Virus record (IMG/VR): IMGVR_UViG_3300021963_000522
Span: 1 to 28,101 of that record
Length of the DNA stretch: 28,101 nt
Source of the DNA: a virus
Strand: one strand, 5' to 3'
Positions 2,448 to 20,827 of this stretch are shown piece by piece (the first letter of the stretch is position 1; each line of letters opens with the position of its first letter). The translations under genes and the position numbers were made by a program. Under the pieces are notes generated by a model. The model saw only the letters and a program-made list of their open reading frames with translations, was not told the DNA's origin and ran no database searches.

Positions 2448-2687
2448 ATGTCGATTAGCTATAACGAAGCTTGGGTGCCGCAGGGCGCGGTTGCAGTCAC
2501 GCCGTCAGACTCGACGTTGGTAAACTGCGTTGCTCTTTATGTGGGCACTACTGGCAGCGTGGTGATTGACACGATTGCCAATACCAACGTGACGTTTGCT
2601 AACGTGCCGAGTGGCACTACCCTTTGGATTAAAGCTATTCGTGTGAAGGCTGCGACGACCGCGCTTAACATTGTGGCGCTGTTCTAA
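2448..2687 (+). CDS. Spike-base-like small virion protein (79 aa)
   Basis: A strong AAGGAGA lies 6 nt before the ATG. The protein has the pattern VAVTPSDSTLVNCVALYVGTTG, a short variable turn, then VTFANVPSGTTLWIKAIRV and NIVAL. This beta-rich layout (TPSDST, ALYVG, V.F.NVP.GT, I.A..V) matches the 'spike base protein, RCAP_Rcc01079' type known from gene transfer agent head spikes and many tailed phages, where it anchors a fiber on the capsid. Its stop overlaps the ATG of the 615-aa fiber (TAATG), which supports a base-plus-fiber pair. It is probably on the capsid surface rather than the tail because it lies among the head and packaging genes; this is inference. Confidence 0.65.
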   Translation: MSISYNEAWVPQGAVAVTPSDSTLVNCVALYVGTTGSVVIDTIANTNVTFANVPSGTTLWIKAIRVKAATTALNIVALF

Positions 2688-4534
2688 TGAGTTTTGGAGC
2701 CGGCGTTTTTCTGCCGCAGAGGTATACTAACAATACCACTGGGCCTGGATCGCTCCATCTGGATTTTCTGACCGGCGCGCCGCTGGACAGCCGCATCACG
2801 TTCAGCCGCACGACGAACGCCACGCTGGTCGATAGCACCGGGCGCGTGACCTACGCGCCGAACAATCTGGTGCTGCGGTCTGAGGAGTTTGAGAACGCGT
2901 TTTGGACTAAGGCGAACGCTACGGTCACTGCTAATGCGACAGCAGCACCCAACGGCACGACTACCGCAGATGCAATTATTGAAAACACGGCAACAGCGAC
3001 GCATGGCGTAACCGCCGCTGTTACGGTAACGACTGGCGTTTCTTACATTTTTAGCGTGTATGCCAAACAGAACGGGCGTAGTTTGCTGCGTGTAGGTTCC
3101 GCTGACTCCCAGAAATATGGGGTGTTTGATCTAATTGCGGGCGTTGTTCAGTATGTAGATGCTGGCGTTTCTGCGTCTATCACTCCTGTAGGGGATGGGT
3201 GGTACAGGTGCGCAGTCACTGAGCGCGCGACTTTAAGCGGAACAGGCACTTACCTTTTCCGTATGCAGTCCAACACTTCAGAGTGGCCGGGAACTGGTCA
3301 GTATACCGGCAACGGCACCTCTGGCGTTTTCCTCTGGGGCGCGCAGTTTGAAGCCGTCACCTACCAGACGCTGCCCTCGACGTATGTGCAGACGGTCGCC
3401 TCGGCCTACTACGCCCCGCGTTTCGACTACAATCCGGTCACGCTGGCTCCGCGCGGCCTGCTGATTGAAGAGCAGCGGGTAAACTTGGTGCTGTACTCGG
3501 AGCAGTTCGATAACGCGGGTTGGACGAAGCTCAACGGGTCGGTTACCGCGAACACCACAACGTCGCCGGATGGCACGGCCAACGCCGATGCTTTTATCGA
3601 AAACACTGCCGCGTCCGCTTTCCACGCTATGGGTCAAGCCGTCACCAAGGCGGCGTCTAGCATTGAATACGCGGGCAGTTTCTATGTCAAAGATAAAGGC
3701 CGTCAGGTAGCATTTAACATTCAAAACGCCGCTGGCTCCAGCGGAGTTCAGGGTCGCGTCAACCCCGCAACAGGTACGGTGACGCAGAACGCTACGGCGT
3801 TTGGATCGGGCTTTACTGCCGGAACCATAACCATAACCAATGCCGGTAATGGTTGGTATCGGGTTGTGATGACCGCAACATCCGACACGTCCACAACCGT
3901 TACGTTTCAGCTTATCCTGCACAACGGCACGACATCCGTTTACACGGGCGATGGCGTCTCCGGCGCGTTCCTCTACGGCGCGCAACTCGAAGCCGGCGCG
4001 TTCGCCACCAGCTACATCCCCACCGTGGCCTCCACGGTCACCCGCGCGGTTGACGTTGCGTCTATGACGGGTACGAACTTCTCTAGCTGGTACAACGCCA
4101 GCGAGGGGACTCTGTTTGCCGCAATTTCCAGCGCCGCACCTACGGCTGCCGGAGCAGCAAGGCGTATCGCAAATATCAATAACGGCACGGAGAGCAATCG
4201 CATAACGGTTGCGTGGGCGGGTAGCACTGGTGTTTCCGCAGCTTTTGTTACTGATGCTGGCGCTACGCAGGCAAACTTTGTGTCGCCGGCAGGGGCTTAT
4301 GCGTTCCCAACCAAAGTCGCGCTGGCCTACAAAGCCAACGATTTTCAGGCGTCTGTCAATGGAACTATTTTCACGGCAGATACCAGCGGTTCGATTCCAA
4401 CTGTTGACCGCATGACGCTTGGCGATGTGGTTTCGGGAGGGACGGGGCCGCAAAATATCAACGGCCACCTTAGCTCCATCACCTACTACGCCACCCGCCT
4501 CACTAACGCGCAGCTACAGGCGCTCACTTCATGA
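2687..4534 (+). CDS. Fiber protein with duplicated carbohydrate-binding-like domains (615 aa)
   Basis: This is a likely virion surface fiber that contacts host or environmental glycans. Residues 1-58 form an N-terminal attachment segment (LDFLTGAPLDSRITFSRTT). Two related beta-sandwich-like units follow: residues about 60-240 (NLVLRSEEFENAFWTK, then GDGWYRCAVT and FLWGAQFEA) and about 265-450 (NLVLYSEQFDNAGWTK, then GNGWYRVVMT and FLYGAQLEA). The PRFDYNPVT..PRGLLIEEQR linker at 244-264 is typical of phage fibers of this class. The C-terminus (about 453-615) reads like a concanavalin/LamG-type lectin domain, with a 'GTLFAAIS', 'ITVAWAGS', 'NGHLSSITYYATRLTNAQL' order. The protein is very rich in Thr, Ala, Asn and Gly with almost no Lys or Cys, as expected of an extracellular fiber. 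It is translationally coupled to genes on both sides. Confidence 0.8.
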   Translation: MSFGAGVFLPQRYTNNTTGPGSLHLDFLTGAPLDSRITFSRTTNATLVDSTGRVTYAPNNLVLRSEEFENAFWTKANATVTANATAAPNGTTTADAIIENTATATHGVTAAVTVTTGVSYIFSVYAKQNGRSLLRVGSADSQKYGVFDLIAGVVQYVDAGVSASITPVGDGWYRCAVTERATLSGTGTYLFRMQSNTSEWPGTGQYTGNGTSGVFLWGAQFEAVTYQTLPSTYVQTVASAYYAPRFDYNPVTLAPRGLLIEEQRVNLVLYSEQFDNAGWTKLNGSVTANTTTSPDGTANADAFIENTAASAFHAMGQAVTKAASSIEYAGSFYVKDKGRQVAFNIQNAAGSSGVQGRVNPATGTVTQNATAFGSGFTAGTITITNAGNGWYRVVMTATSDTSTTVTFQLILHNGTTSVYTGDGVSGAFLYGAQLEAGAFATSYIPTVASTVTRAVDVASMTGTNFSSWYNASEGTLFAAISSAAPTAAGAARRIANINNGTESNRITVAWAGSTGVSAAFVTDAGATQANFVSPAGAYAFPTKVALAYKANDFQASVNGTIFTADTSGSIPTVDRMTLGDVVSGGTGPQNINGHLSSITYYATRLTNAQLQALTS

Positions 4535-8601: not shown

Positions 8602-9325
8602 GATGGTGGAAGGCAATAACGGCGAGACTCCGATTGAGAGCGCAGCGCCCGTTGACGAGTCACGTCCCGAGTGGCTGCCTGAGAAGTTTTGGGTTGAGGG
8701 CAAGCCGGCCTACGATAAGCTGGCTCAATCCTATGGCGAGCTCGAAAAGATGCGCGGCAATCTGCGCGAGAAGCTTGTCGAGGAATTGACAACCGAGCGC
8801 CTTGCTGCGCGGCCTGAAGCGCCTAATGCCTACAAACTGCCGGAACACGAGAAGCTCGATCAGGAGCAACTTGAAGCATCGGGCGTTGTTCAGTGGTGGC
8901 GTCAGTTTGCCCACGATCAGGGATACAATCAGGAACAGTTTGAAACTGCCATCAATACCTACGCCGACCTACAGGTGAAGGAGATTGAGGAAAGCTATCA
9001 GCGCGAGTTTCAAAAGCTTGGCGAGAGCGCAACTGCCCGCATCGAGGCCGTCCAACTGTGGGCTGGCAACTACTTCAACGAAGAAGAGCAGGTTGCAATT
9101 TCTGCTGCTTGCACCAGTGCCGCTGGCGTGGCCGCAATGGAAAAGTTAATGTCTGCGCTTAAGGGTTCGGGCGTGGTTGACAACACCATGTTCGAAAAGA
9201 AGCCGGAGCCTACTCGAGCAGACGTTGAGAAGATGATGCAGGATCGCCGCTATTGGCATCCGGCAGATCGTGATCCTGCGTTTGTGCGCCAGGTGGAAGA
9301 GTTCTTCGCCAAGACCTTCCGCTAA
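8594..9325 (+). CDS. Capsid assembly scaffolding protein (243 aa)
   Basis: This is an internal scaffold that directs capsid shell assembly and leaves before or during packaging. The sequence is acidic and helical, with the podovirus scaffold opening RPEWLPEKFWVEGKPAYDKL and SYGELEKM (residues about 24-55), a 'PNAYKLPEHEKLDQE' linker, a central WWRQFAHDQGYNQEQFETAI helix pair, and a C-terminal ADVEKMMQDRRYWHPADRDP segment ending in a basic helix. That order (P-E-W-L-P-E-K-F-W, Y..La.sY.eLek) is characteristic of T7 gp9-type scaffolds. The Shine-Dalgarno is GGGGAAG. Position just before the capsid genes supports the call, although a GNAT gene intervenes. Confidence 0.85.
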   Translation: MTEMVEGNNGETPIESAAPVDESRPEWLPEKFWVEGKPAYDKLAQSYGELEKMRGNLREKLVEELTTERLAARPEAPNAYKLPEHEKLDQEQLEASGVVQWWRQFAHDQGYNQEQFETAINTYADLQVKEIEESYQREFQKLGESATARIEAVQLWAGNYFNEEEQVAISAACTSAAGVAAMEKLMSALKGSGVVDNTMFEKKPEPTRADVEKMMQDRRYWHPADRDPAFVRQVEEFFAKTFR

Positions 9326-9804
9326 TGCGCGTTCGCTTTATGGAGGAGCGGGATATTCCCGTTGTCATTACGCTTGGCAGCTTAATGCACCGTGAAGCGC
9401 CGGAGTATGCTGACTTTCAATTTGACGAGGGCAAGCTCGAGCGCCTTGCTTGGGCTTGCCTCTCTGAAAGGGACTGGTCAACAATCGTCGCAGAGACTGA
9501 GGTGAACGGTGAGATTCGAATCGTCGGATTCCTTGTAGCCGCCGCAGTCGAAACTTTCTTTGGGCCCGACCGATTCACTGAGGACTTGGCATTCTATGTA
9601 ATGCCAGGATTTCGAGGCACGTCGGCTGCTATCAAAATGCTAACGCTGCTTGAGGTTTGGTCGAATGCCGTTGGCACAAAGCGTGTACGGATTGGCATAA
9701 CTACCGGCATTAATGGCGATGTAGCGGGTAGGTTTCTGCTGCGTATGGGTTATGTTGATAGTGGCGCGCTTTACTCTAAAGCAATTAGTCCATTGCCGGC
9801 TTGA
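9325..9804 (+). CDS. GNAT-family N-acetyltransferase (159 aa)
   Basis: This is an acetyl-CoA-dependent transferase predicted from the GNAT fold. An N-terminal beta-alpha unit (MRVRFMEERDIPVVITL) is followed by strands at IVGFLVAAAVETFFG, and motif A with the pyrophosphate-binding loop in FYVMPGFRGTSAAIKMLTLL (residues about 91-110). A strand at VRIGITTGING and an 'AGRFLLRMGYVDSGALYSK' end fit motif B and the usual G-F/Y-x end. The gene overlaps the scaffold stop (TAATG) and sits between scaffold and major capsid, so it is made with head proteins. The substrate is unknown; modification of a capsid or host protein is possible. Repeat copy 3 lies in its last codons. Confidence 0.85.
   Translation: MRVRFMEERDIPVVITLGSLMHREAPEYADFQFDEGKLERLAWACLSERDWSTIVAETEVNGEIRIVGFLVAAAVETFFGPDRFTEDLAFYVMPGFRGTSAAIKMLTLLEVWSNAVGTKRVRIGITTGINGDVAGRFLLRMGYVDSGALYSKAISPLPA
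9786..9795 (+). repeat. Repeated 10-mer TAGTCCATTG, copy 3
   Basis: Exact copy inside the 3' end of the GNAT gene, where it spans part of the Ile-Ser-Pro-Leu codons. It lies 141 nt before the capsid ATG, the longest distance among the four copies. Confidence 0.7.
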
Positions 9805-11700: not shown

Positions 11701-13877
11701 TGCCGACCATCAAGCAGGTCCAAACCAACTTCTCATCAGGGGAAGTTGATCCGCTGCTGCGTATGCGTGTGGATACTGGCGCATACCAGAATGGCGCGGC
11801 CACTCTGCGTAACTGCTCATTGCTGAATACTGGCGGCGTAAGCAGGCGGGCGGGCACCCGTTATCTTGCCACCCTTACTACTGATAGCAGGCTTTTGCCG
11901 TTCGAGTTTTCGTCCTCGGAGCGTTATGTCTTTGCTTTGAGCAATGGTCGCCTCGATGTGTTCAGCACGTCGGGGACACTGCTAACTACGATCACAAGCA
12001 CCGTTCCGTGGACAGGCGCACAGCTTCGACAGATTAGCTACACTCAGGCAGCGGATGTGATGATCCTGTGCCATCCATCTTGGGCACCTCGCGTGGTGCG
12101 TCGGACGGGCGCATCCAGTTTTACGATTAGCACCTTTGCGTTTGACACGAGCCTAGACGGCAACAAGATTTATCAGCCTTATTATAAGTTTGCCGATGAC
12201 ACGGTGACGATCAGCGTTAGTGCCGTATCAGGCACGGGCGTAACCATTACCGCTTCGAGTGCCGTATTCACGTCTGCCTATGTGGGCACGATTGTGCGCT
12301 GGAAAGACGTTGAGATTCTCATCACTACCTACACAAATGCCACGACCTTGGTAGGTAACATCAAGGGACGGCTTGAAGGCTCTCTTGATATTAATCCGCT
12401 TCGCACCTCGCATAGTAGCGATGTTGTTGAAGTGACTCATGCTTTGCATGGATTTGCCACTGGGCAGAGTGTGACGATTAGCGGTGCCAATGGCTTTGCT
12501 GGTGTTACTTTTGCTCAGATCAACGGCACTTTTTCGATCACCGTGATTGATGACAATCGCTATAGTTACGCGACTGGACATAACGCAAACGCATCAGAAG
12601 ATGGCGGCGGCCCTACGGTCAAATTTACAAGCAGCACAACTTCCACTCGAGACTGGTCCGAGCAGACTTACTCTGCGGTCAATGGCTATCCTGGAGCGGT
12701 TGCTTTCCACGAAAGTCGCCTTTGGTTTGGCGGTAGCAGTGCCGTGCCTGATGGCTTGTGGGCTTCTAAAATTGGCCTGTTCTTCAACTTCGATGTGGGC
12801 GAAGGCCTCGATGATGAGAGCATTCAGATCACTATCGGCAGTGAGGATATCTCGAACGTAAAGCACATCGTATCAAACCGAGACTTGCAGATTTTTACAG
12901 CAAGCGGCGAGTTCTTTGTGCCGCGTTCAAGCACCCAGGCAATGACGCCCACTACCATTCGAATCTCAAGGCAAACGCCATTCGGCTCGAGTGATGTCAC
13001 TCCGCTTCCGTTTGATGGCGCTACTCTGTTTGTGCAGGGCTCGGGCAAATCTGTGCGCGAGTTTGTCTATAATGACAGCGCGAATGGTTATGCCTCGACC
13101 GACATTACCTTGCTATCTAGCCACCTTATCAACAGCCCCGTTGATATGGCGGTGCTGTTTGGTTCGACCGTGCGCGGTGAGCAGTATGCTCTGGTGGTGA
13201 ACAATGATGGCACGATGGCAGTGTTCAACTCGGCACGGTCTGAAAACGTGGCAGGGTGGACAACGTGGGAATTTGGAACCAAGGCCATCAACCTGTTTCG
13301 CTCGGTATGCACCTTGGGCGAACTGGTATTTGTCGCAGTGCAGCGCAACCTGACATATACGCTCGAGTTGCTCTCGGACGCCGAAGCCCTGACGGTTGAT
13401 AGCGCGATAAGCCTGACCGGATCGTCAAGCGCAACTTGGACGCTGGGCTCTTACTACGCTAACAAGGTGGTCGATGTTGTCTCGAGCAACATGTATCTTG
13501 GCACCTTCACTGCAAACGGCTCCGGCGTCATTACGCTTACTGAGCCAGTGACGAAGGTAACTGCCGGGTTCACCTATCCGGTGGAGATTACCACTCTGCC
13601 CGTACACTTGCAGCTTCCCACTGGCTCACTCTTGGGTATGCCTAAACGAATCAACCGTGTTCTTGTTGGGCTGAACAGCACCCTATCTTGCGTGGTCTCG
13701 AACAACCGACTGCTGCTTCGTCAGGTGACAGACGACTTGTCCGTTGCACCTGCCCTATTTACAGGGATTAAGGAGTTCTTCTTGCTTGGTTACAATCGAG
13801 AGGCGAAGGTCACGATTACGCAGGATGAGCCTCTGCCATTGAGGGTGCTAGGGATGAACATGGAGGTGTCTTTCTAA
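11700..13877 (+). CDS. Tail nozzle protein, T7 gp12-like (725 aa)
   Basis: This protein builds the hexameric nozzle of the short tail. The N-terminus QTNFSSGEVDPLLRMRVDTG followed by 'AATLRNCSLLNTGGVSRRAGTRYL' is the recognised opening of podovirus nozzle proteins of this class. The body is beta-rich with propeller-like repeats, including a central 'AVNGYPGAVAFHESRLWFGG' segment and 'FVQGSGKSVREFVYNDSANG'. The length (725 aa) is near that of T7 gp12 (794 aa). No enzymatic motif is visible. It is coupled to the adaptor upstream and to the 170-aa core protein downstream by TAATG overlaps. Confidence 0.85.
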   Translation: MPTIKQVQTNFSSGEVDPLLRMRVDTGAYQNGAATLRNCSLLNTGGVSRRAGTRYLATLTTDSRLLPFEFSSSERYVFALSNGRLDVFSTSGTLLTTITSTVPWTGAQLRQISYTQAADVMILCHPSWAPRVVRRTGASSFTISTFAFDTSLDGNKIYQPYYKFADDTVTISVSAVSGTGVTITASSAVFTSAYVGTIVRWKDVEILITTYTNATTLVGNIKGRLEGSLDINPLRTSHSSDVVEVTHALHGFATGQSVTISGANGFAGVTFAQINGTFSITVIDDNRYSYATGHNANASEDGGGPTVKFTSSTTSTRDWSEQTYSAVNGYPGAVAFHESRLWFGGSSAVPDGLWASKIGLFFNFDVGEGLDDESIQITIGSEDISNVKHIVSNRDLQIFTASGEFFVPRSSTQAMTPTTIRISRQTPFGSSDVTPLPFDGATLFVQGSGKSVREFVYNDSANGYASTDITLLSSHLINSPVDMAVLFGSTVRGEQYALVVNNDGTMAVFNSARSENVAGWTTWEFGTKAINLFRSVCTLGELVFVAVQRNLTYTLELLSDAEALTVDSAISLTGSSSATWTLGSYYANKVVDVVSSNMYLGTFTANGSGVITLTEPVTKVTAGFTYPVEITTLPVHLQLPTGSLLGMPKRINRVLVGLNSTLSCVVSNNRLLLRQVTDDLSVAPALFTGIKEFFLLGYNREAKVTITQDEPLPLRVLGMNMEVSF

Positions 13878-14389
13878 TGTGCGTCTCAGCAACCGTTCTT
13901 GCTGCTGCATCCCTTGTCGCGGCAAGTGCCGGCACCGCCGTTTCCATTTCCGCTGCTCAGGCAAACAAACGCGCTCAACAGAGTATGCTTGATGAGCAAC
14001 GCAAGCAACTGAATGAAGAGCGTGAGATTGCCCGTCTGCAGGCCCAGGAGGCCGAGGTGGAGCGTCTTAATGACTTCCGTAGGCAAAGGGCTAGCAACGC
14101 TGCTTCACTGGCAGCATCAGGTGTGCGCGAGAACATTAGCTTCCTCCAGGGCGTTATGCCAGCGGAGGAGCGCGCCTTGCGTTTAGACATTGGCGCTATT
14201 CGCATGGGCGACATTACTGGCCAGAATCGCATTGCTTCGCAGATTCGCGTTAATCGTTTTTCGCGCGATGTTGCTGGGTTCAATGCCCGAGCGCAGACTA
14301 TTGGTGCAGTGGCTAGCCTTGTTGGAACGGCTGCCAGTGTTGGTTCTTCATATAATCAAACTAAAATACCAAAACCAGCTGGAGGCTAA
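13877..14389 (+). CDS. Internal virion (ejection) protein, T7 gp14-like (170 aa)
   Basis: This is a predicted capsid-core protein ejected into the host envelope. The N-terminus is a small-residue hydrophobic helix (TVLAAASLVAASAGTAVSIS), followed by a long charged coiled coil (residues about 30-75, QSMLDEQRKQLNEEREIARL) and a second Gly/Ala-rich hydrophobic stretch near residue 150 (GAVASLVGTAASVG). This layout and length (170 versus 196 aa) fit T7 gp14, which forms the outer-membrane pore of the ejectosome. Position directly between nozzle and the 705-aa protein matches the T7 gene order 12-14-15-16. Assignment is by architecture, not by a clear sequence motif. Confidence 0.75.
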   Translation: MCVSATVLAAASLVAASAGTAVSISAAQANKRAQQSMLDEQRKQLNEEREIARLQAQEAEVERLNDFRRQRASNAASLAASGVRENISFLQGVMPAEERALRLDIGAIRMGDITGQNRIASQIRVNRFSRDVAGFNARAQTIGAVASLVGTAASVGSSYNQTKIPKPAGG

Positions 14390-14392
14390 TTC

Positions 14393-16510
14393 GTGGCCAT
14401 TCAACCTTTTCGCCGTCGCATTGGTATCTCCAGTCCTGGCAGCCTGCTGTCTGGCAATGCTCCGCAGATTGCTGACGTTGGCCCATCAATCTCTCGTGCA
14501 GCTGGCCAGGTGTTTGAAGCTGCGCAGCCTGCCATGCGGGCGAAGGCTGTTCGAGAAGGTCAGCTTGCTGCAGGCCAGGCGGAAATTAAACGCGACGAGA
14601 AGGGTCGCGCGCTTCCCATTGAGACGCCCAAAGATGCTGGCTTGCTGTATCAACAGGCGTTTGAGGAAGTGGCACAAGCGCGTTACATTTCCAACGTGTC
14701 GCTCGACTTCCAATCAAAGCTTGATGCTGAAATTGAAGCCATGCGCTCTGGTAAGGATGGCAAGAAGCTAGACGCTGAATCTTATCGCGCCTTCGTCGAG
14801 GGGACTGCTCAAGGCATACTCGAGGTTGCCGATCCGCGTGTGCGCCCACTGCTCGAACAAACACTTGGCCGTGAAGGACAGGAGCGCACTCGTGCTGTCT
14901 ACGGCGAAGCTGGGCAACGTGCACGACAGGATTTGATGAGCGCGTTGAACAACGACTACACTCGGCTTACCAAACTAGTGGCTGATGCGTCTAGTAGAGG
15001 CGATGTAGCCCAGGTAGCTAATTACCAAGCTCAAATGACCGCTCTAACTGATGCTGCGATAAAAGCGGGCACTATTGGAGAAAAGTTTGCAGGGTCAAAG
15101 CAGGAGGATCAAAAGGTCCAATATGCAGAAGCAGTTAACAACGCAATTAGTATGCGTACCGTTAATGAGGCAACCCCTCTAATCTTTGGTCTTTCTGGCG
15201 ATGAACTGCAAATAGTTGAGCAGAGACTCAATAATATTAGTTCAGGAGGAAGCCTGCGGAAAGAGGCTCCTATCCTTGCAACTGACAAGCTTTTTAAATT
15301 GAGTGATTTTTCCAAGCGGACTCTTCTTGGCGTAGTCACTGATCGCAGGCAGCAGATTGCTGCTGAAGCGGCAGCTGCTCGCGCTGCGCGGGCAGAGGCG
15401 ATTAGAGATGCGAGGGAAGAGGCGCGCACTGCTCGGATTGAAAATGCTCTTATTGAAGCAAAGAGCGGAGATTATACCGGCAACTATGACGCCAAAACTC
15501 AAGCCTATCTAAGCCAAAAGTTTATGAAAACCGTTGGGTTTAAAGGGCTTAATGCGCCCAACGGAAGCGATGCGTTGCTGGCTTTTATTGGCGACACACA
15601 GTATGTGCCGAAAGAGGTTATTAGCTGGATGGATAATAGTATCCGTTCGAGCAACCCAATGACAGCGGTCAATCTGTTTAGCAGCGTTAGCAAAGCCCGT
15701 GTGAATGGTGCTGCGGTTGGCGATCTAATGCTGGCGAGGATGGACTCGCGTTCTGCCGCCCTGTTCCGTCGTGCTACTATGGCGTTGGAGATGAACACCC
15801 CTCCGTCCGATGTGCTAACCTTGCTCGATAAGACCAGAACATCTACTGGCTTTACGTTTGACGAGGCTCGTTCGACCTACAATCGTGGATCATCAAAGAC
15901 TAGGGGCTTTGACGTTGACCTTGATAGCAAGGCTCCGTCTTATTTTGGCTTGCCAAAGGGCTCGACGGTGCCTTCTAATATTCGCTCTCGAGTGAATCAG
16001 GCATACGTTGACAACCTTGATCTTCACCCCGGCAATCCAGAGGCTGCTCTGGACGCTGCGTTGGGACAGGTAGCGCCGCTGTACACAAGAAACAGTGTGT
16101 TCAGAGGAGGCATTGGTCCCGCTGTGCTTATGCGTGTAGCCACAAACCAGAAGCTTGCCGATCTGGTGAGCAACCTTACTATCCAGGGCAAGCCGTTTCT
16201 GACTGCAGCACCGGGCGGTAAGAAGCACACAGTTGGTCCAGGTGGCAATGTTAAGTTTGTTCCAGCTGATGACGACGTTGCCGACGTAGGCGCATATCGG
16301 ATTGAGGTTTACGATCCTACCAACCCAAGCAGGCTAATGCTGCCCGTGCTATCTATCGACCTTGGTGCCGCACTAGCTTTGCGCGGCGAAGAGAACGCAA
16401 AAACTAAAGGTGCGCCATTGACGCCTCTAGCATCTCAGCCTCTAACTCAAGCTGAAAAAGACAAAATTGCTTTTGAGCGTAAAAACCGCGAACCATTGTG
16501 GGTGAAATAA
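14393..16510 (+). CDS. Internal virion (ejection) protein, T7 gp15-like (705 aa)
   Basis: A GTG start at 14393 follows a GGAGG site about 8 nt upstream. The protein is largely alpha-helical, with many Ala/Glu/Arg/Gln-rich helices, e.g. ISRAAGQVFEAAQPAMRAKA and an 'AAEAAAARAARAEAIRDARE' coiled coil at about residues 323-350. No lysozyme or transglycosylase motif (E-S and GLMQ pattern) is visible. Size and position match T7 gp15 (747 aa), the periplasmic tunnel component of the ejectosome. It is co-translated with its 1438-aa partner (the stop adjoins the next ATG). Assignment rests on order, size and helical composition. Confidence 0.75.
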   Translation: MAIQPFRRRIGISSPGSLLSGNAPQIADVGPSISRAAGQVFEAAQPAMRAKAVREGQLAAGQAEIKRDEKGRALPIETPKDAGLLYQQAFEEVAQARYISNVSLDFQSKLDAEIEAMRSGKDGKKLDAESYRAFVEGTAQGILEVADPRVRPLLEQTLGREGQERTRAVYGEAGQRARQDLMSALNNDYTRLTKLVADASSRGDVAQVANYQAQMTALTDAAIKAGTIGEKFAGSKQEDQKVQYAEAVNNAISMRTVNEATPLIFGLSGDELQIVEQRLNNISSGGSLRKEAPILATDKLFKLSDFSKRTLLGVVTDRRQQIAAEAAAARAARAEAIRDAREEARTARIENALIEAKSGDYTGNYDAKTQAYLSQKFMKTVGFKGLNAPNGSDALLAFIGDTQYVPKEVISWMDNSIRSSNPMTAVNLFSSVSKARVNGAAVGDLMLARMDSRSAALFRRATMALEMNTPPSDVLTLLDKTRTSTGFTFDEARSTYNRGSSKTRGFDVDLDSKAPSYFGLPKGSTVPSNIRSRVNQAYVDNLDLHPGNPEAALDAALGQVAPLYTRNSVFRGGIGPAVLMRVATNQKLADLVSNLTIQGKPFLTAAPGGKKHTVGPGGNVKFVPADDDVADVGAYRIEVYDPTNPSRLMLPVLSIDLGAALALRGEENAKTKGAPLTPLASQPLTQAEKDKIAFERKNREPLWVK

Positions 16511-19500
16511 ATGGAAGTTCCTCTTCCCGGAATCCGTCAGCGTTCGCCGCAGTCACTTCTTCCAGGGCAACCAGCCGAAGAAGCGTATGGGGCATTTGAT
16601 GCCTTCAAGAACCAGATGGCCCTTGGTGTCTACGGGCAGATAAAGGACTTTGGGGAGCGGCTGTACGCTCGAGGTGCAGGCATTGATGCTACCTTTGACG
16701 GTTTGGATAACATCCCTCGTGGATACGAGAAGTACGCTCGAGAGTATGCTTATGCTCGCAATGCCGAAGAGGCAGACGTAATCACCCGCAACATTAATGA
16801 GAACGATGCGGCTCGTCAGCGGCTGTCGGAATACGACTTGAGCACAAACTTGCTGTCTGGTTTTGTTGCTGGCCTTGTTGATCCGGTGAACCTAATTCCT
16901 GTTCCAGGATTGGCGGGGATTGGCTTTGTCAAAGCAGCATTGCGTGGCGGTGCTGCGATTGGCGCAATCAACACTGGACAGGAAGTGCTTCGTCACGAGC
17001 TCGATCCAACAAGCTCGAGAGCGGAAACCGCTATCAACATTGGCGCTGGCGTTCTACTTGGTGGCCTGTTCTCTGGCGCTATTGGTCACGCGCTACGTAA
17101 TCGTCAGCCTGTGCCGCTAGATGGTCTGGAGCAGGATGCAGTTAACTCGCTGGCTGCTCGCTTTGATGAAGCTGCTGCTGTTGGCGATAGCATTTCTCCG
17201 CTGTCGTCTTTTGATATGAGAGGTAAGGGCTTCAAAGTTGTCGATGGCAACACCGGCAAATACGATCCCAGTGGTAATTATCAGTTTGCTTCCTACCGAT
17301 CTGCAAGTGAAACCAATGCAGTAGGCGCTCGAGTTACGATTGACGAGGTTCCTGTAGGAGCCAAGAGTGGTGACGAGTTGCTGCAAGATGAACTCTCTAA
17401 GCCAAATCCTTTTGAGTACGATATTGATGCACCCATTGGACCAACCGTTTATCACGGAACCAGGGTGTCATCTGATAACGTAGATTCTTTCATCGACGGC
17501 AATGGCAATCTGACGCTTACGCCGGGTGAAAACTTTGGCCTATCGGGCGTCTCCTTTGGTGTGCAGCGACAAGTAGCAACTGACTACTCGACTCGTGTTC
17601 GCGGTGGTGACCGATCTGCCAACAACTCGGTGGTATTCGAAGTTGAGGCTGATGCCGTTCCTGGTCTAAAGCGCGAAACCATGGGAGAGGCTGCGATCTA
17701 CACAGACGCGCCTATCGTTATCCCACCTGGCAAGTGGCGCTTGACGGACGCCATGACTGGAGAGCCTATCAATGTTCGTATTCCAGAGGGTGTGGCTGAC
17801 GATTCTATTGTAATCGATAGCTCCGCTGCAATCGCAGAGTTTCCAGCCAAGCCGTGGACTCGTCCTTCAATCGAAGGTGCAACTCCACTGCCTGCCGACG
17901 CCTTCCGCACCCCTGCGGAGTGGCTGGACTTCCTTATGTTGAAGGAAGCCAATCGCAGCATCACGACAAAACTAGCAACCGAAACTGATGCGGCATTTGA
18001 AAATCGGATTAGCCAGATTGCTCTTGAGGAAGTTAAGAGTGAGCGCGCACCGTTGGCCGCTGCCGGTGGTCGGATTGCTAGAAGCTGGCTGGCTGTGATT
18101 CCAACAGGCCGACTAGTATCATTGCTCGGTCAAAAGCATCGCGCTGCATATGAACTCTTTGAGGGAATTGGGGGCGACTATCAGAGCATGACGGTGGCTA
18201 ACCAAGTGCTTCGCGCAACCACGCCAGGCGGCTCTGTGTTTATGAAGTCGCTCATGTGGCAGCGTCACGTTGCGTTTGTTAAGGATGCAAACGAGCAAGC
18301 CTATATAAACTATCTTCGTGGTGAAACACCGCAACCGCGTCCTCAACTTTCAGCATCAACTCAGACGCTTGTTTCCGAGATCCCCCGGATTGGGCGGGTT
18401 TTTCGCGGAAACAAAATGACCTTTGCTCAGTTTCGTGAGTTTACTGGTCGGGCTGCAAACACCGACGAAGATTTTACGATGAACGGCATAAGCCTGACGC
18501 CAAAGGAAATGTCTTTTGTCCGCAAGGCCGGCGATCAAATTCGCAAAAGCCTTGCCGACTTTGAGGAGGGCTCTCGGGCTGCCGAACTGTTTGACGGCCA
18601 GAAGTCTCTCAAGCGGGAAGTTGCATGGCGCAATGCTGCGCTTGATCGGAATCTGGAGTATCTAATTGAACTGCAAGGCAAGGTCGATCAGGCTAAGGCT
18701 CGAGAAGCAGAGCTTGGTCGCCGCCTAACTACAGGCGAGAAGGCTGAAATATTTGGCAAGGAGATGGGCAAGGTTGCCGAGCTTGCTGAGAAAGAGCGCC
18801 TTGCTGGCAAACCTCCTTATGATCCTGGCTTCATGCCCGATGGAACGCCGCGCACACCTCCTTCCCTGTCAACAAGGGCTAAGGGTTATGCTGAACGCAT
18901 GGTGCCGTTCTTGAAAGAGCAAAACCAGAAGCACGTTGATAGGTTGCTCGAGCTTGTCGATCTGGAGCAGACTCTTAATACGATTCCAATTAAGCCCGCT
19001 CGTGAGAAGTACTACTTCCCTCGCTTTTTTGACATTCAAAAAATCACAGACAACTTTGATGGGTTCGTAAAGCGCGTTGCTGAATCGTTTGGCGGCGATG
19101 AGGCAGCTTTTGGCCGCGCAAGAGACGTGGCTAATCGAATCATTGGCAATGGTGGCGAAGAGTTTTTGCCTACTGATGGTATTGGTAGCCCGAAAAACAC
19201 GCGTGGACGCCAACTTGATCTGACCAACGAAGAGTTGGCTGACTTTATCGTGTGGGATTCTGATGCGGTCATGGGTATCTATGCCCGTCGCATGGGCTCG
19301 GCAATTGAAATGCAGAGCCGATACGGTTCTCTCGATTTGGAAGAGCAACTGGACGAACTTAAAACCACCCTAATCTCTGAAGGCTATAAGGCTGATGAGA
19401 TTACAAAGGCTATTCAAATTATTGAAGATACCCGCGACAAAACGCTGAACAGATTTCACGGCAAGGACCCGATGAGTTGGAACAATCGAGCTGTTCGTGT

Positions 19501-20827
19501 AATTAAAAACGTCGAGCGCCTTCAGACAATGGGCAGCGCCATATACTCACAGACAACGGACGTTACTAAAGCGTTGGCTCAGATTGGCTATCGTCCCGTT
19601 CTTTCCGCACTTAGCACTGCATGGGATGGCCAGTTTAAGTCGCTTGCTCGGGCTGCAAACGCTCAACAATTTGCTGAAGGTCTTGAGTTAGCAATGTCAT
19701 CTTCAATGTCTCGTATGATTGAAAACGATTCGGCGCTTATGGTGACAAGGCAGACCGCATTTGAGCGCGGCCTTGCTGCGTCTCAGCCTTGGCTTTTCCG
19801 CGCCAACTTGATGAATCCATTCACCGTTGTTTGGAAACAAGCTGTTGCCATGATAGGCAATCACCGGATGATTGAGGATGCTGTTGCTATTGCAAAAGCG
19901 TTCAATGAGGGGCGCACCGCAGAAACCCTGACCAAAGCTGAGTTGAAAACAGCAGCAAGGTTGAGCAGTTTTGGTATTAATCCTCGCATGGCTCGAGTAA
20001 TTGCAGAAATGCCCTGGGAAAAAACCACGGATACCGGCCTGATTCTACCTAATATTGACGCTTGGCCGGGACAGCTTGGCTCCGAAGCGGCGGATGTTTT
20101 TAGGGCGGCAGCGCAAGGGCAGATTAGATCGGCAGTTATTACTCCTGGACCAAATCAACGTCACCCAATTATGGATGGCGTGGTGCGTTGGAATGGGGAG
20201 CGTAAAGAAATGCCTTTCCTTTCCCTTCCATTCAGTCTGCTTTCTTTCACCGTCTCGAGTTCAGCTAAGTTCAACCATGCCGCCGCAACCGGGCGAGATC
20301 GCAGCGTAACCATTTCGCTGGCCGCTCTGCTTATGGGTGGCTACATCACCACTTGGTTTCGGGCCGGTGATCGTTGGGAAAGCATGGATTGGAAAGAGCG
20401 CTTTGTGGGGGCTTTTGAAAGTTCTGGCATCATGGGCTGGATGGGCGAGGTTATTAAAAAGGAAGAAATGATAACCGGCTACGGCTTGAAAAGCATTGCT
20501 GGCATTGAACCTTATGGAGAGGATTTGATTAGTCAAAAAGTTGGCGCAGTTGCCGGACCTGCGGCTGGCATTATGGCCGGTGTGATCGAGGCGTTCGCCA
20601 ACACCGATCCTAACATTACTGAATACCAACGTGCTGGCATGATTCGCCGCGCATTGCCTTTTGCCAGCCTAATTGAGTTTGATTTTTTCATGAAGGACTT
20701 CAACAAGATGGCGGTTGATTCCGGCTTGATCGAAGACTTTGTGGAACCAGAACCTGACTTTGAGGAAGAGGACGCTGCGGTTGAGGCAGCTAGTCCATTG
20801 TCACCAGAATCAGAGTTGAACAATTAG
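16511..20827 (+). CDS. Large ejection protein, T7 gp16-like, with an ADP-ribosyltransferase-like segment (1438 aa)
   Basis: This is the largest gene of the window. Order and length match T7 gp16 (1318 aa), the inner-membrane part of the DNA-ejection tunnel. The N-terminal region has two Gly/Ala-rich amphipathic membrane-interacting stretches (residues about 118-150 and 177-200, 'NLLSGFVAGLVDPVNLIPVP' and 'INIGAGVLLGGLFSGAIGHA'). Residues about 310-410 hold a YHGT motif (Y314-H315-G316-T317), then 'GLSGVSFGVQRQVATDYSTR' (Y359) and 'MGEAAIYT' (E393), which reads as a candidate ADP-ribosyltransferase fold with a possible H-Y-E triad. No transglycosylase motif like that of T7 gp16 is seen. Long helical regions fill the centre, a hydrophobic segment (SLAALLMGGYITTWF) lies near residue 1270, and the acidic tail ends in repeat copy 4. 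The start adjoins the previous stop and lacks a strong ribosome site, so coupling is likely. Confidence 0.8.
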   Translation: MEVPLPGIRQRSPQSLLPGQPAEEAYGAFDAFKNQMALGVYGQIKDFGERLYARGAGIDATFDGLDNIPRGYEKYAREYAYARNAEEADVITRNINENDAARQRLSEYDLSTNLLSGFVAGLVDPVNLIPVPGLAGIGFVKAALRGGAAIGAINTGQEVLRHELDPTSSRAETAINIGAGVLLGGLFSGAIGHALRNRQPVPLDGLEQDAVNSLAARFDEAAAVGDSISPLSSFDMRGKGFKVVDGNTGKYDPSGNYQFASYRSASETNAVGARVTIDEVPVGAKSGDELLQDELSKPNPFEYDIDAPIGPTVYHGTRVSSDNVDSFIDGNGNLTLTPGENFGLSGVSFGVQRQVATDYSTRVRGGDRSANNSVVFEVEADAVPGLKRETMGEAAIYTDAPIVIPPGKWRLTDAMTGEPINVRIPEGVADDSIVIDSSAAIAEFPAKPWTRPSIEGATPLPADAFRTPAEWLDFLMLKEANRSITTKLATETDAAFENRISQIALEEVKSERAPLAAAGGRIARSWLAVIPTGRLVSLLGQKHRAAYELFEGIGGDYQSMTVANQVLRATTPGGSVFMKSLMWQRHVAFVKDANEQAYINYLRGETPQPRPQLSASTQTLVSEIPRIGRVFRGNKMTFAQFREFTGRAANTDEDFTMNGISLTPKEMSFVRKAGDQIRKSLADFEEGSRAAELFDGQKSLKREVAWRNAALDRNLEYLIELQGKVDQAKAREAELGRRLTTGEKAEIFGKEMGKVAELAEKERLAGKPPYDPGFMPDGTPRTPPSLSTRAKGYAERMVPFLKEQNQKHVDRLLELVDLEQTLNTIPIKPAREKYYFPRFFDIQKITDNFDGFVKRVAESFGGDEAAFGRARDVANRIIGNGGEEFLPTDGIGSPKNTRGRQLDLTNEELADFIVWDSDAVMGIYARRMGSAIEMQSRYGSLDLEEQLDELKTTLISEGYKADEITKAIQIIEDTRDKTLNRFHGKDPMSWNNRAVRVIKNVERLQTMGSAIYSQTTDVTKALAQIGYRPVLSALSTAWDGQFKSLARAANAQQFAEGLELAMSSSMSRMIENDSALMVTRQTAFERGLAASQPWLFRANLMNPFTVVWKQAVAMIGNHRMIEDAVAIAKAFNEGRTAETLTKAELKTAARLSSFGINPRMARVIAEMPWEKTTDTGLILPNIDAWPGQLGSEAADVFRAAAQGQIRSAVITPGPNQRHPIMDGVVRWNGERKEMPFLSLPFSLLSFTVSSSAKFNHAAATGRDRSVTISLAALLMGGYITTWFRAGDRWESMDWKERFVGAFESSGIMGWMGEVIKKEEMITGYGLKSIAGIEPYGEDLISQKVGAVAGPAAGIMAGVIEAFANTDPNITEYQRAGMIRRALPFASLIEFDFFMKDFNKMAVDSGLIEDFVEPEPDFEEEDAAVEAASPLSPESELNN
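20791..20800 (+). repeat. Repeated 10-mer TAGTCCATTG, copy 4
   Basis: Exact copy in the last codons of the large ejection protein, spanning part of Ala-Ser-Pro-Leu. It ends 42 nt before the tailspike ATG. As at copy 2, TAGGCT follows after exactly 24 nt (20825-20830), and ATTG/CAAT plus AGTC/GGCT can form a hairpin. Confidence 0.7.

What the first reader, a model, noticed from the sequence alone, without database searches (positions are those of the whole stretch)
17447..17740. ADP-ribosyltransferase-like segment inside the 1438-aa DNA-ejection protein
Residues V313-Y-H-G-T317, then a G-x-S-F-G segment with A-x-D-Y359, and an E393 in GEAAIY, spaced as in YHGT-type ART domains with an H-Y-E triad. 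The host protein is the T7 gp16-like component predicted to enter the cell with the DNA. An ART delivered this way would modify host targets before any phage gene is expressed, in analogy with T4 Alt. T7 gp16 carries a transglycosylase domain, which is not seen here, so this lineage may have exchanged one N-terminal enzymatic cargo for another.
Basis: partly seen in the sequence, partly recalled or inferred. Interest (0 to 1): 0.65.

Follow-up and report, generated by a model that had tools for sequence, protein, structure and literature searches.

The report
Possible ADP-ribosyltransferase cassette in phage ejection protein
A T7-like phage carries, inside the large protein it injects together with its DNA, a transplantable ~140-residue segment that is probably an ADP-ribosyltransferase-type enzyme, sitting where related phages carry other effector domains or nothing at all.

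Summary
The motifs are real: residues 313-317 VYHGT, 346-350 GVSFG, A356-T-D-Y359 and E393 lie in a 1438-aa gp16-like ejection protein. The combined signature occurs in 6 of 20,000 shuffles and, in 285,603 aa of other ORFs, hits only known or same-family ARTs plus one false positive. The segment (residues ~284-425) is a discrete cassette: absent in Hodr, replaced by a linker in sister phages, under dN/dS 0.05-0.1, and apparently exchanged between two lineages (79% identical there, 45% elsewhere). In relatives the same interval also holds a second ART-like domain, a DarB-type polyvalent-protein domain, or a zeta-toxin kinase. Against certainty: no library HMM recognises it; two AlphaFold models are poor (pLDDT 51, 58) and Foldseek is not significant, though its leading PDB hits include ART-superfamily entries. 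The 'swap for transglycosylase' idea fails: relatives without the cassette also lack that domain, and the cassette lies after the membrane segments, on the predicted cytoplasmic side. Verdict: probable injected ART cargo, a new variant of a known theme; activity unproven.

The parts
16511..20827 (+). gp16-like DNA-ejection (internal virion) protein, 1438 aa
   Evidence: PHROG_342 E 9e-33 at residues 70-224 and phrog_16310 E 6e-20 at 868-1389; third of the gp14-gp15-gp16 gene run
16760..17080 (+). residues 84-190: conserved N-core with two hydrophobic segments (126-144, 174-192), aligned with T7 gp16 298-404
   Evidence: hhalign P 1.6e-5, 30% identity; hydropathy
17360..17785 (+). mobile ART-like cassette, residues ~284-425
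   Evidence: absent in Hodr and replaced by a linker in L081-L083; 79% identity between lineages that are 45% identical elsewhere; dN/dS 0.05-0.10
17447..17749 (+). ART-like core, residues 313-413: YHGT, GVSFG-x6-ATDY, SVVFEVE strand, E393, IVIPPGKWRL
   Evidence: motif test; hhalign register with phage ART-PolyVal
17453..17455 (+). His315, predicted strand-1 NAD-binding histidine
   Evidence: aligns with H of YHGT in RPP1 and other phage ARTs; invariant in 8
17552..17554 (+). Ser348, at the position of the ART triad aromatic residue (Tyr/Phe/Trp in the other phage ARTs aligned)
   Evidence: register GVSFG/GLFFT/GFYFT/PLWFT
17585..17587 (+). Tyr359, the A-x-x-[YFW] aromatic position 11 residues after Ser348
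17687..17689 (+). Glu393, predicted strand-5 catalytic acid (E/D/Q position)
   Evidence: invariant in 8; placed by eye against the Asp of YDG in ART-PolyVal; the automatic alignment did not reach it
19112..20677 (+). residues 868-1389: conserved C-terminal ejection-protein core with C-terminal hydrophobic segments
   Evidence: phrog_16310; hydropathy
13877..14389 (+). gp14-like internal virion protein
   Evidence: phrog_418 E 1.6e-4
14393..16510 (+). gp15-position protein, 705 aa, no family match
   Evidence: position; no match at E 0.001 in PHROGs or at E 5 in Pfam

Best explanation
Residues ~284-425 are an ADP-ribosyltransferase-superfamily domain carried as an exchangeable cargo cassette inside the gp16-like ejection protein of a T7-like podovirus. 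The protein would be packed in the head, ejected with gp14 and gp15, and span the inner membrane by its hydrophobic segments; the ART sits just after them, at the start of the part that in T7 gp16 lies in the cytoplasm. There it would use host NAD+ to ADP-ribosylate a host macromolecule (or deplete a defence signal) before phage genes are expressed, in the manner of T4 Alt and the ARTs of polyvalent proteins. Shown: gp16 homology, motif signature, cassette presence/absence, exchange between lineages, purifying selection, other effector domains at the same site. Inferred: ART fold, catalysis, delivery, topology, target.
For: Signature in 6/20,000 shuffles and near-specific for ARTs. hhalign with a 7-member phage ART-PolyVal profile puts YHGT on YHGT and SGVSFGVQRQVATDY on SGLFFTNSLELARDY; the family ranks 4th of 520 ORF segments behind three genuine or likely ARTs. 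Foldseek on two crops gives ART-related entries among the leading PDB hits (TreX/TreTu complexes; Tpt1 from two archaea), none significant. Cassette boundaries by empty site in Hodr and linker in L081-L083. Exchange: within lineages cassette and core diverge about equally (0.880 vs 0.894; 0.946 vs 0.941), between lineages 0.79 vs 0.45; dS 1.2-1.5 vs 1.9 to saturated. dN/dS 0.05-0.10. The same interval holds a zeta-toxin domain in L047 (E 1.3e-10), with an ART-like insert further on; L052 has a polyvalent protein with two PF18760 ARTs just upstream of gp16; L001/L002 carry a DarB-type polyvalent domain (63% to PBC5 gp22; phrog_938 E 4.5e-61). T7 topology: gp16-C (411-1118) modelled as cytoplasmic (PMC8954989).
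Against: No Pfam, NCBIfam or PHROG ART model matches. AlphaFold pLDDT 51 and 58 from only 7-8 close sequences; no Foldseek hit under E 0.1. With a 10-member ART profile the score is matched by about 7 of 1,000 shuffles. The triad tyrosine position is serine in all 8 members, so catalysis is uncertain. Conservation of the named residues is not diagnostic in so small a family.
Confidence: 0.6

Rival explanations
1. ART-fold pseudoenzyme: the cassette has the ART fold but, with Ser at the triad aromatic position, binds NAD+/ADP-ribose or a partner rather than transferring ADP-ribose, for example a decoy or sponge for a NAD-based defence signal.
For: Ser348 replaces the Tyr/Phe/Trp seen in the other phage ARTs aligned and is fixed in all 8 members.
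Against: H315, E393 and Y359 are all retained; R-S-E ARTs (own knowledge) work with serine on the equivalent strand.
Confidence: 0.17
2. Not an ART: a lineage-specific structural or linker domain of the ejection protein in which the YHGT and GxxF-x6-AxxY motifs coincide by chance.
For: No library model, poor AlphaFold models, non-significant Foldseek; one unrelated protein shows the same motif by chance.
Against: Clean absence in relatives, lineage-to-lineage exchange and effector domains at the same site fit cargo, not structure; motif match 3e-4 per protein by shuffling.
Confidence: 0.2
3. One reading: the ART replaced the N-terminal transglycosylase as an alternative enzymatic cargo.
For: The window protein begins at about T7 gp16 residue 215, so the transglycosylase region (1-156) is missing.
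Against: Hodr and L081-L083 lack both domains; the two domains occupy different positions on opposite sides of the hydrophobic segments.
Confidence: 0.03

Closest known systems
ART-PolyVal (PF18760) domains of phage polyvalent proteins, e.g. Roseovarius Plymouth podovirus 1 vRNAP (Iyer et al. 2017, PMC5512222)
   Same: YHGT strand-1 motif, GxxF-x6-AxxY spacing, virion-protein context, injected with DNA (predicted), podovirus
   Different: Not matched by the HMM; Ser at triad aromatic position; Glu where that clade has Asp in strand 5; host protein is a gp16-like ejection protein, not a vRNAP or MuF protein
T4 Alt (R-S-E clade, injected ART)
   Same: Proposed mode of action: ART delivered with the DNA before gene expression
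   Different: Different ART clade (R-S-E against H-x-E); Alt is a free head protein, this is a domain of the DNA conduit itself
T7 gp16 internal virion protein
   Same: Homologous membrane-flanked N-core, gene order gp14-gp15-gp16, hydrophobic pattern
   Different: Lacks the transglycosylase and most of the molecular-tape region; has a ~140-aa cassette that T7 lacks
Pelagibacter phage EXVC031P (Hodr) gp16 homologue WDQ27578.1
   Same: Collinear on both sides of the cassette, 24-32% identity
   Different: Empty site: the cassette interval (window residues ~281-452) is missing
DarB-like polyvalent protein PBC5_gp22 of Sinorhizobium phage PBC5
   Same: Shares at 63% identity the second cassette found next to the ART in L001/L002
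   Different: That second cassette is absent from the window; PBC5 gp22 has no detectable ART of this family

Membership tests
ART superfamily, H-Y-[EDQ] clade | Histidine in strand 1 (xHG[TS]) | tested here: met
   H315 in VYHGT, invariant
ART superfamily, H-Y-[EDQ] clade | Aromatic residue at triad position in strand 2 | tested here: not met
   Ser348 in all members; the other phage ARTs aligned have Tyr/Phe/Trp
ART superfamily, H-Y-[EDQ] clade | Second aromatic in A-x-x-[YFW], 11 residues after the triad position | tested here: met
   Y359
ART superfamily, H-Y-[EDQ] clade | Glu/Asp/Gln in strand 5 | tested here: inconclusive
   E393 is invariant but its register with the ART-PolyVal Asp was set by eye; hhalign stops before it
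ART superfamily, H-Y-[EDQ] clade | Split beta-sheet ART fold | tested here: inconclusive
   pLDDT 51 and 58; Foldseek leading hits include ART folds but E 0.25-2
ART-PolyVal PF18760 | HMM score over the curated cut-off 31.2 | tested here: not met
   No match at E 10
Any ART | NAD+-dependent ADP-ribosyl transfer or NAD hydrolysis | not testable with these tools
   Needs protein
T7 gp16-like internal virion proteins | Homology of the membrane-flanked core | tested here: met
   PHROG_342 E 9e-33; hhalign to T7 gp16
T7 gp16-like internal virion proteins | Third gene of gp14-gp15-gp16 run downstream of tail tube genes | tested here: met
T7 gp16-like internal virion proteins | N-terminal transglycosylase (phage-specific, not universal) | tested here: not met
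   Protein begins at about T7 residue 215; no Pfam match
Phage polyvalent proteins | Large virion-encoded protein with several disparate effector domains | tested here: inconclusive
   Window has one candidate effector; L001/L002, L007 and L047 have two
Phage polyvalent proteins | Encoded among late virion genes | tested here: met

The most novel reading that the evidence does not exclude
The interval just after the membrane segments of gp16-like ejection proteins is a general cargo bay: phages swap effector domains (ART, zeta-toxin kinase, DarB-type polyvalent domains) through it, so that the DNA conduit itself delivers enzymes to the cytoplasmic face of the membrane at the moment of DNA entry.
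Probability: 0.5. Interest if true: 0.68.

Novelty: new variant of a known kind. Interest (0 to 1): 0.5.

Why it matters
Injected ARTs are known as free head proteins (T4 Alt) or as domains of vRNAP, MuF and polyvalent proteins, and only about 3% of podoviruses were found to encode an ART (PMC9503650). An ART inside the gp16-like conduit protein would place the enzyme at the DNA entry site, and an exchangeable site in that protein would give a defined place to look for early-acting, possibly counter-defence, enzymes in podoviruses. It also predicts that the start of gp16-C tolerates a folded ~140-residue insert, which bears on models of how gp16 unfolds and refolds during ejection.

Tried and rejected
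Pfam, PHROG and NCBIfam scans of the segment: nothing usable. PDB sequence searches: nothing. PF18760 directly on the loci: nothing. Pattern scans of viral contigs with the whole protein, the ART family and another gp16 part found no cassette relatives beyond 7 contigs. Phage and plasmid records: no usable match. The genome search around a cellular centre was not possible. A mixed alignment of this ART with L007/L052/L047 ARTs for a threaded AlphaFold run was tried in MAFFT and rejected because GVSFG was not put in register, and because it would have been circular. A ten-member ART profile lowered rather than raised the window score. The 'transglycosylase swap' was rejected on Hodr and L081-L083. 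Conservation of H315/Y359/E393 as proof was rejected because most columns are invariant.

Full report
What is there. The window is a virus record holding a T7-like structural cluster: terminase, portal (head-tail adaptor), T7-type scaffold, major head protein, tail tube A and B, gp14-like protein, a 705-aa gp15-position protein, the 1438-aa protein in question, and a tail fibre. The 1438-aa protein matches PHROG_342 (internal virion protein, E 9e-33, residues 70-224) and phrog_16310 at the C-terminus. Profile alignment with T7 gp16 pairs window residues 84-190 with T7 298-404 at 30% identity (P 1.6e-5), and the two proteins share the layout of hydrophobic segments, two near the N-core and three near the C-terminus. 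The window protein therefore starts at about T7 residue 215; the transglycosylase (T7 1-156) and most of the molecular tape (157-228) are missing.

Is the motif more than chance? The signature [YFWL]HG[TSG], 15-60 residues, Gxx[hydrophobic]x6Axx[YFW] occurs once in the protein, in 6 of 20,000 shuffles of it, and in 285,603 aa of ORFs from the fetched loci only in recognised ARTs, in this family, and once by chance. Against a seven-member profile of phage ART-PolyVal domains built around the Roseovarius Plymouth podovirus 1 vRNAP ART, hhalign put YHGT on YHGT and SGVSFGVQRQVATDY on SGLFFTNSLELARDY without a gap in the second block (P 0.009). Among 520 ORF segments the family ranked fourth, behind two ARTs of L052 and one ART-like segment of L047, with a fifth, probably non-coding, segment close behind. 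A wider ten-member profile gave 19.4, a score reached by about 7 of 1,000 shuffles. This is suggestive, not proof.

Structure. Only eight family members (window included) exist in the collections searched, so AlphaFold had little to work with: pLDDT 51 and 58. The second model has strands at VYHGTRVS, SVVFEVE, EAAI, IVI and KWRLT, an order compatible with an ART. Foldseek found nothing significant, but the leading PDB entries were TreX and TreTu complexes for the first crop (TreX is an ART, PMC12605009; whether the matched chain is the toxin was not checked) and, by probability, archaeal Tpt1 structures for the second. Tpt1 belongs to the ART superfamily (own knowledge).

Residues. Ungapped comparison with phage ARTs places Ser348, not Tyr359, at the triad aromatic position; Tyr359 is the A-x-x-[YFW] residue 11 positions on. 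Glu393 fits the strand-5 acid by eye.

A cassette. In Pelagibacter phage Hodr the gp16 homologue aligns on both sides and lacks window residues ~281-452. In the sister lineage L081-L083, flanks GNTGKYD and DDAAIL...KPWTKPR are kept and a low-complexity linker stands between. Within lineages the segment and the rest of the protein diverge alike (win-L002 0.880 and 0.894; L003-L004 0.946 and 0.941), but between the two lineages the segment is 79% identical and the rest 45%, with synonymous divergence unsaturated in the segment (dS 1.2-1.5) and 1.9 to saturated elsewhere. The simplest reading is exchange of the cassette after the lineages split. The tree of the rest of the protein joins the two ART-bearing lineages with only moderate support (88/80). 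dN/dS of 0.05-0.10 shows it is a maintained coding domain.

Other cargo at the same place. L007 carries a second ART-like domain (LFHGYG...ARYMSFSKTEAQNF...IDGIVIAF) directly after the first (hhalign to the ten-member ART profile P 0.004). L001 and L002 carry instead a domain 63% identical to part of the DarB-like polyvalent protein of Sinorhizobium phage PBC5 (phrog_938 E 4.5e-61). L047 has a zeta-toxin domain (PF06414 E 1.3e-10) in the interval and an ART-like insert further on; L052 has a polyvalent protein (LPD23, putative metallopeptidase, ART-PolyVal domains) just upstream of its gp16 gene. Most other relatives have a short interval and no cargo.

Mechanism. In T7, gp16 residues from 411 are modelled as the cytoplasmic part of the ejection complex (PMC8954989). 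T7 404 aligns with window 190, so the cassette at 284-425 should be among the first cytoplasmic segments. An ART there would act on host NAD+ and a host target at DNA entry, as T4 Alt does and polyvalent-protein ARTs are thought to do (PMC5512222, PMC9503650). Target, activity and topology in this phage are inference.

What is new. Injected phage ARTs and polyvalent proteins are established; the two survey papers read do not mention gp16, and searches for ART with ejection proteins or internal virion proteins brought up no such report in the open-access library. The new points are the host protein, the exchangeable site behind its membrane segments, and the odd serine. The idea that the ART replaced the transglycosylase is not supported.

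Noticed in passing
window 9325-9804 (+): GNAT acetyltransferase (PF00583 E 3.3e-5, over cut-off) encoded between the scaffold and major head protein genes, an unusual place for such an enzyme.
   Followed up: no
L002 14801-15598: The gp16-like protein of L002 has a long C-terminal extension ending in a motif (ITFGCITASREVF) reminiscent of YkuD L,D-transpeptidases; Pfam gave no match.
   Followed up: partly
L047 8059-12336: gp16-like protein with a zeta-toxin domain (PF06414) at residues 381-463 and an ART-like YYHGG insert near residue 1105.
   Followed up: partly
L052 5706-9598: Polyvalent protein with LPD23, putative metallopeptidase and ART-PolyVal domains directly upstream of a gp16-like gene.
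   Followed up: partly
L001 and L002, after the ART cassette: Second cassette of ~130 aa, 63% identical to part of DarB-like PBC5 gp22, lost or never gained in the window.
   Followed up: yes
window 2687-4534 (+): A 615-aa protein matching a tail-protein family (phrog_5939 E 3e-98) lies upstream of the terminase, apart from the other tail genes.
   Followed up: no
window 14393-16510 (+): The 705-aa gp15-position protein has no PHROG match at E 0.001 and no Pfam match at E 5, although its neighbours are recognised.
   Followed up: no
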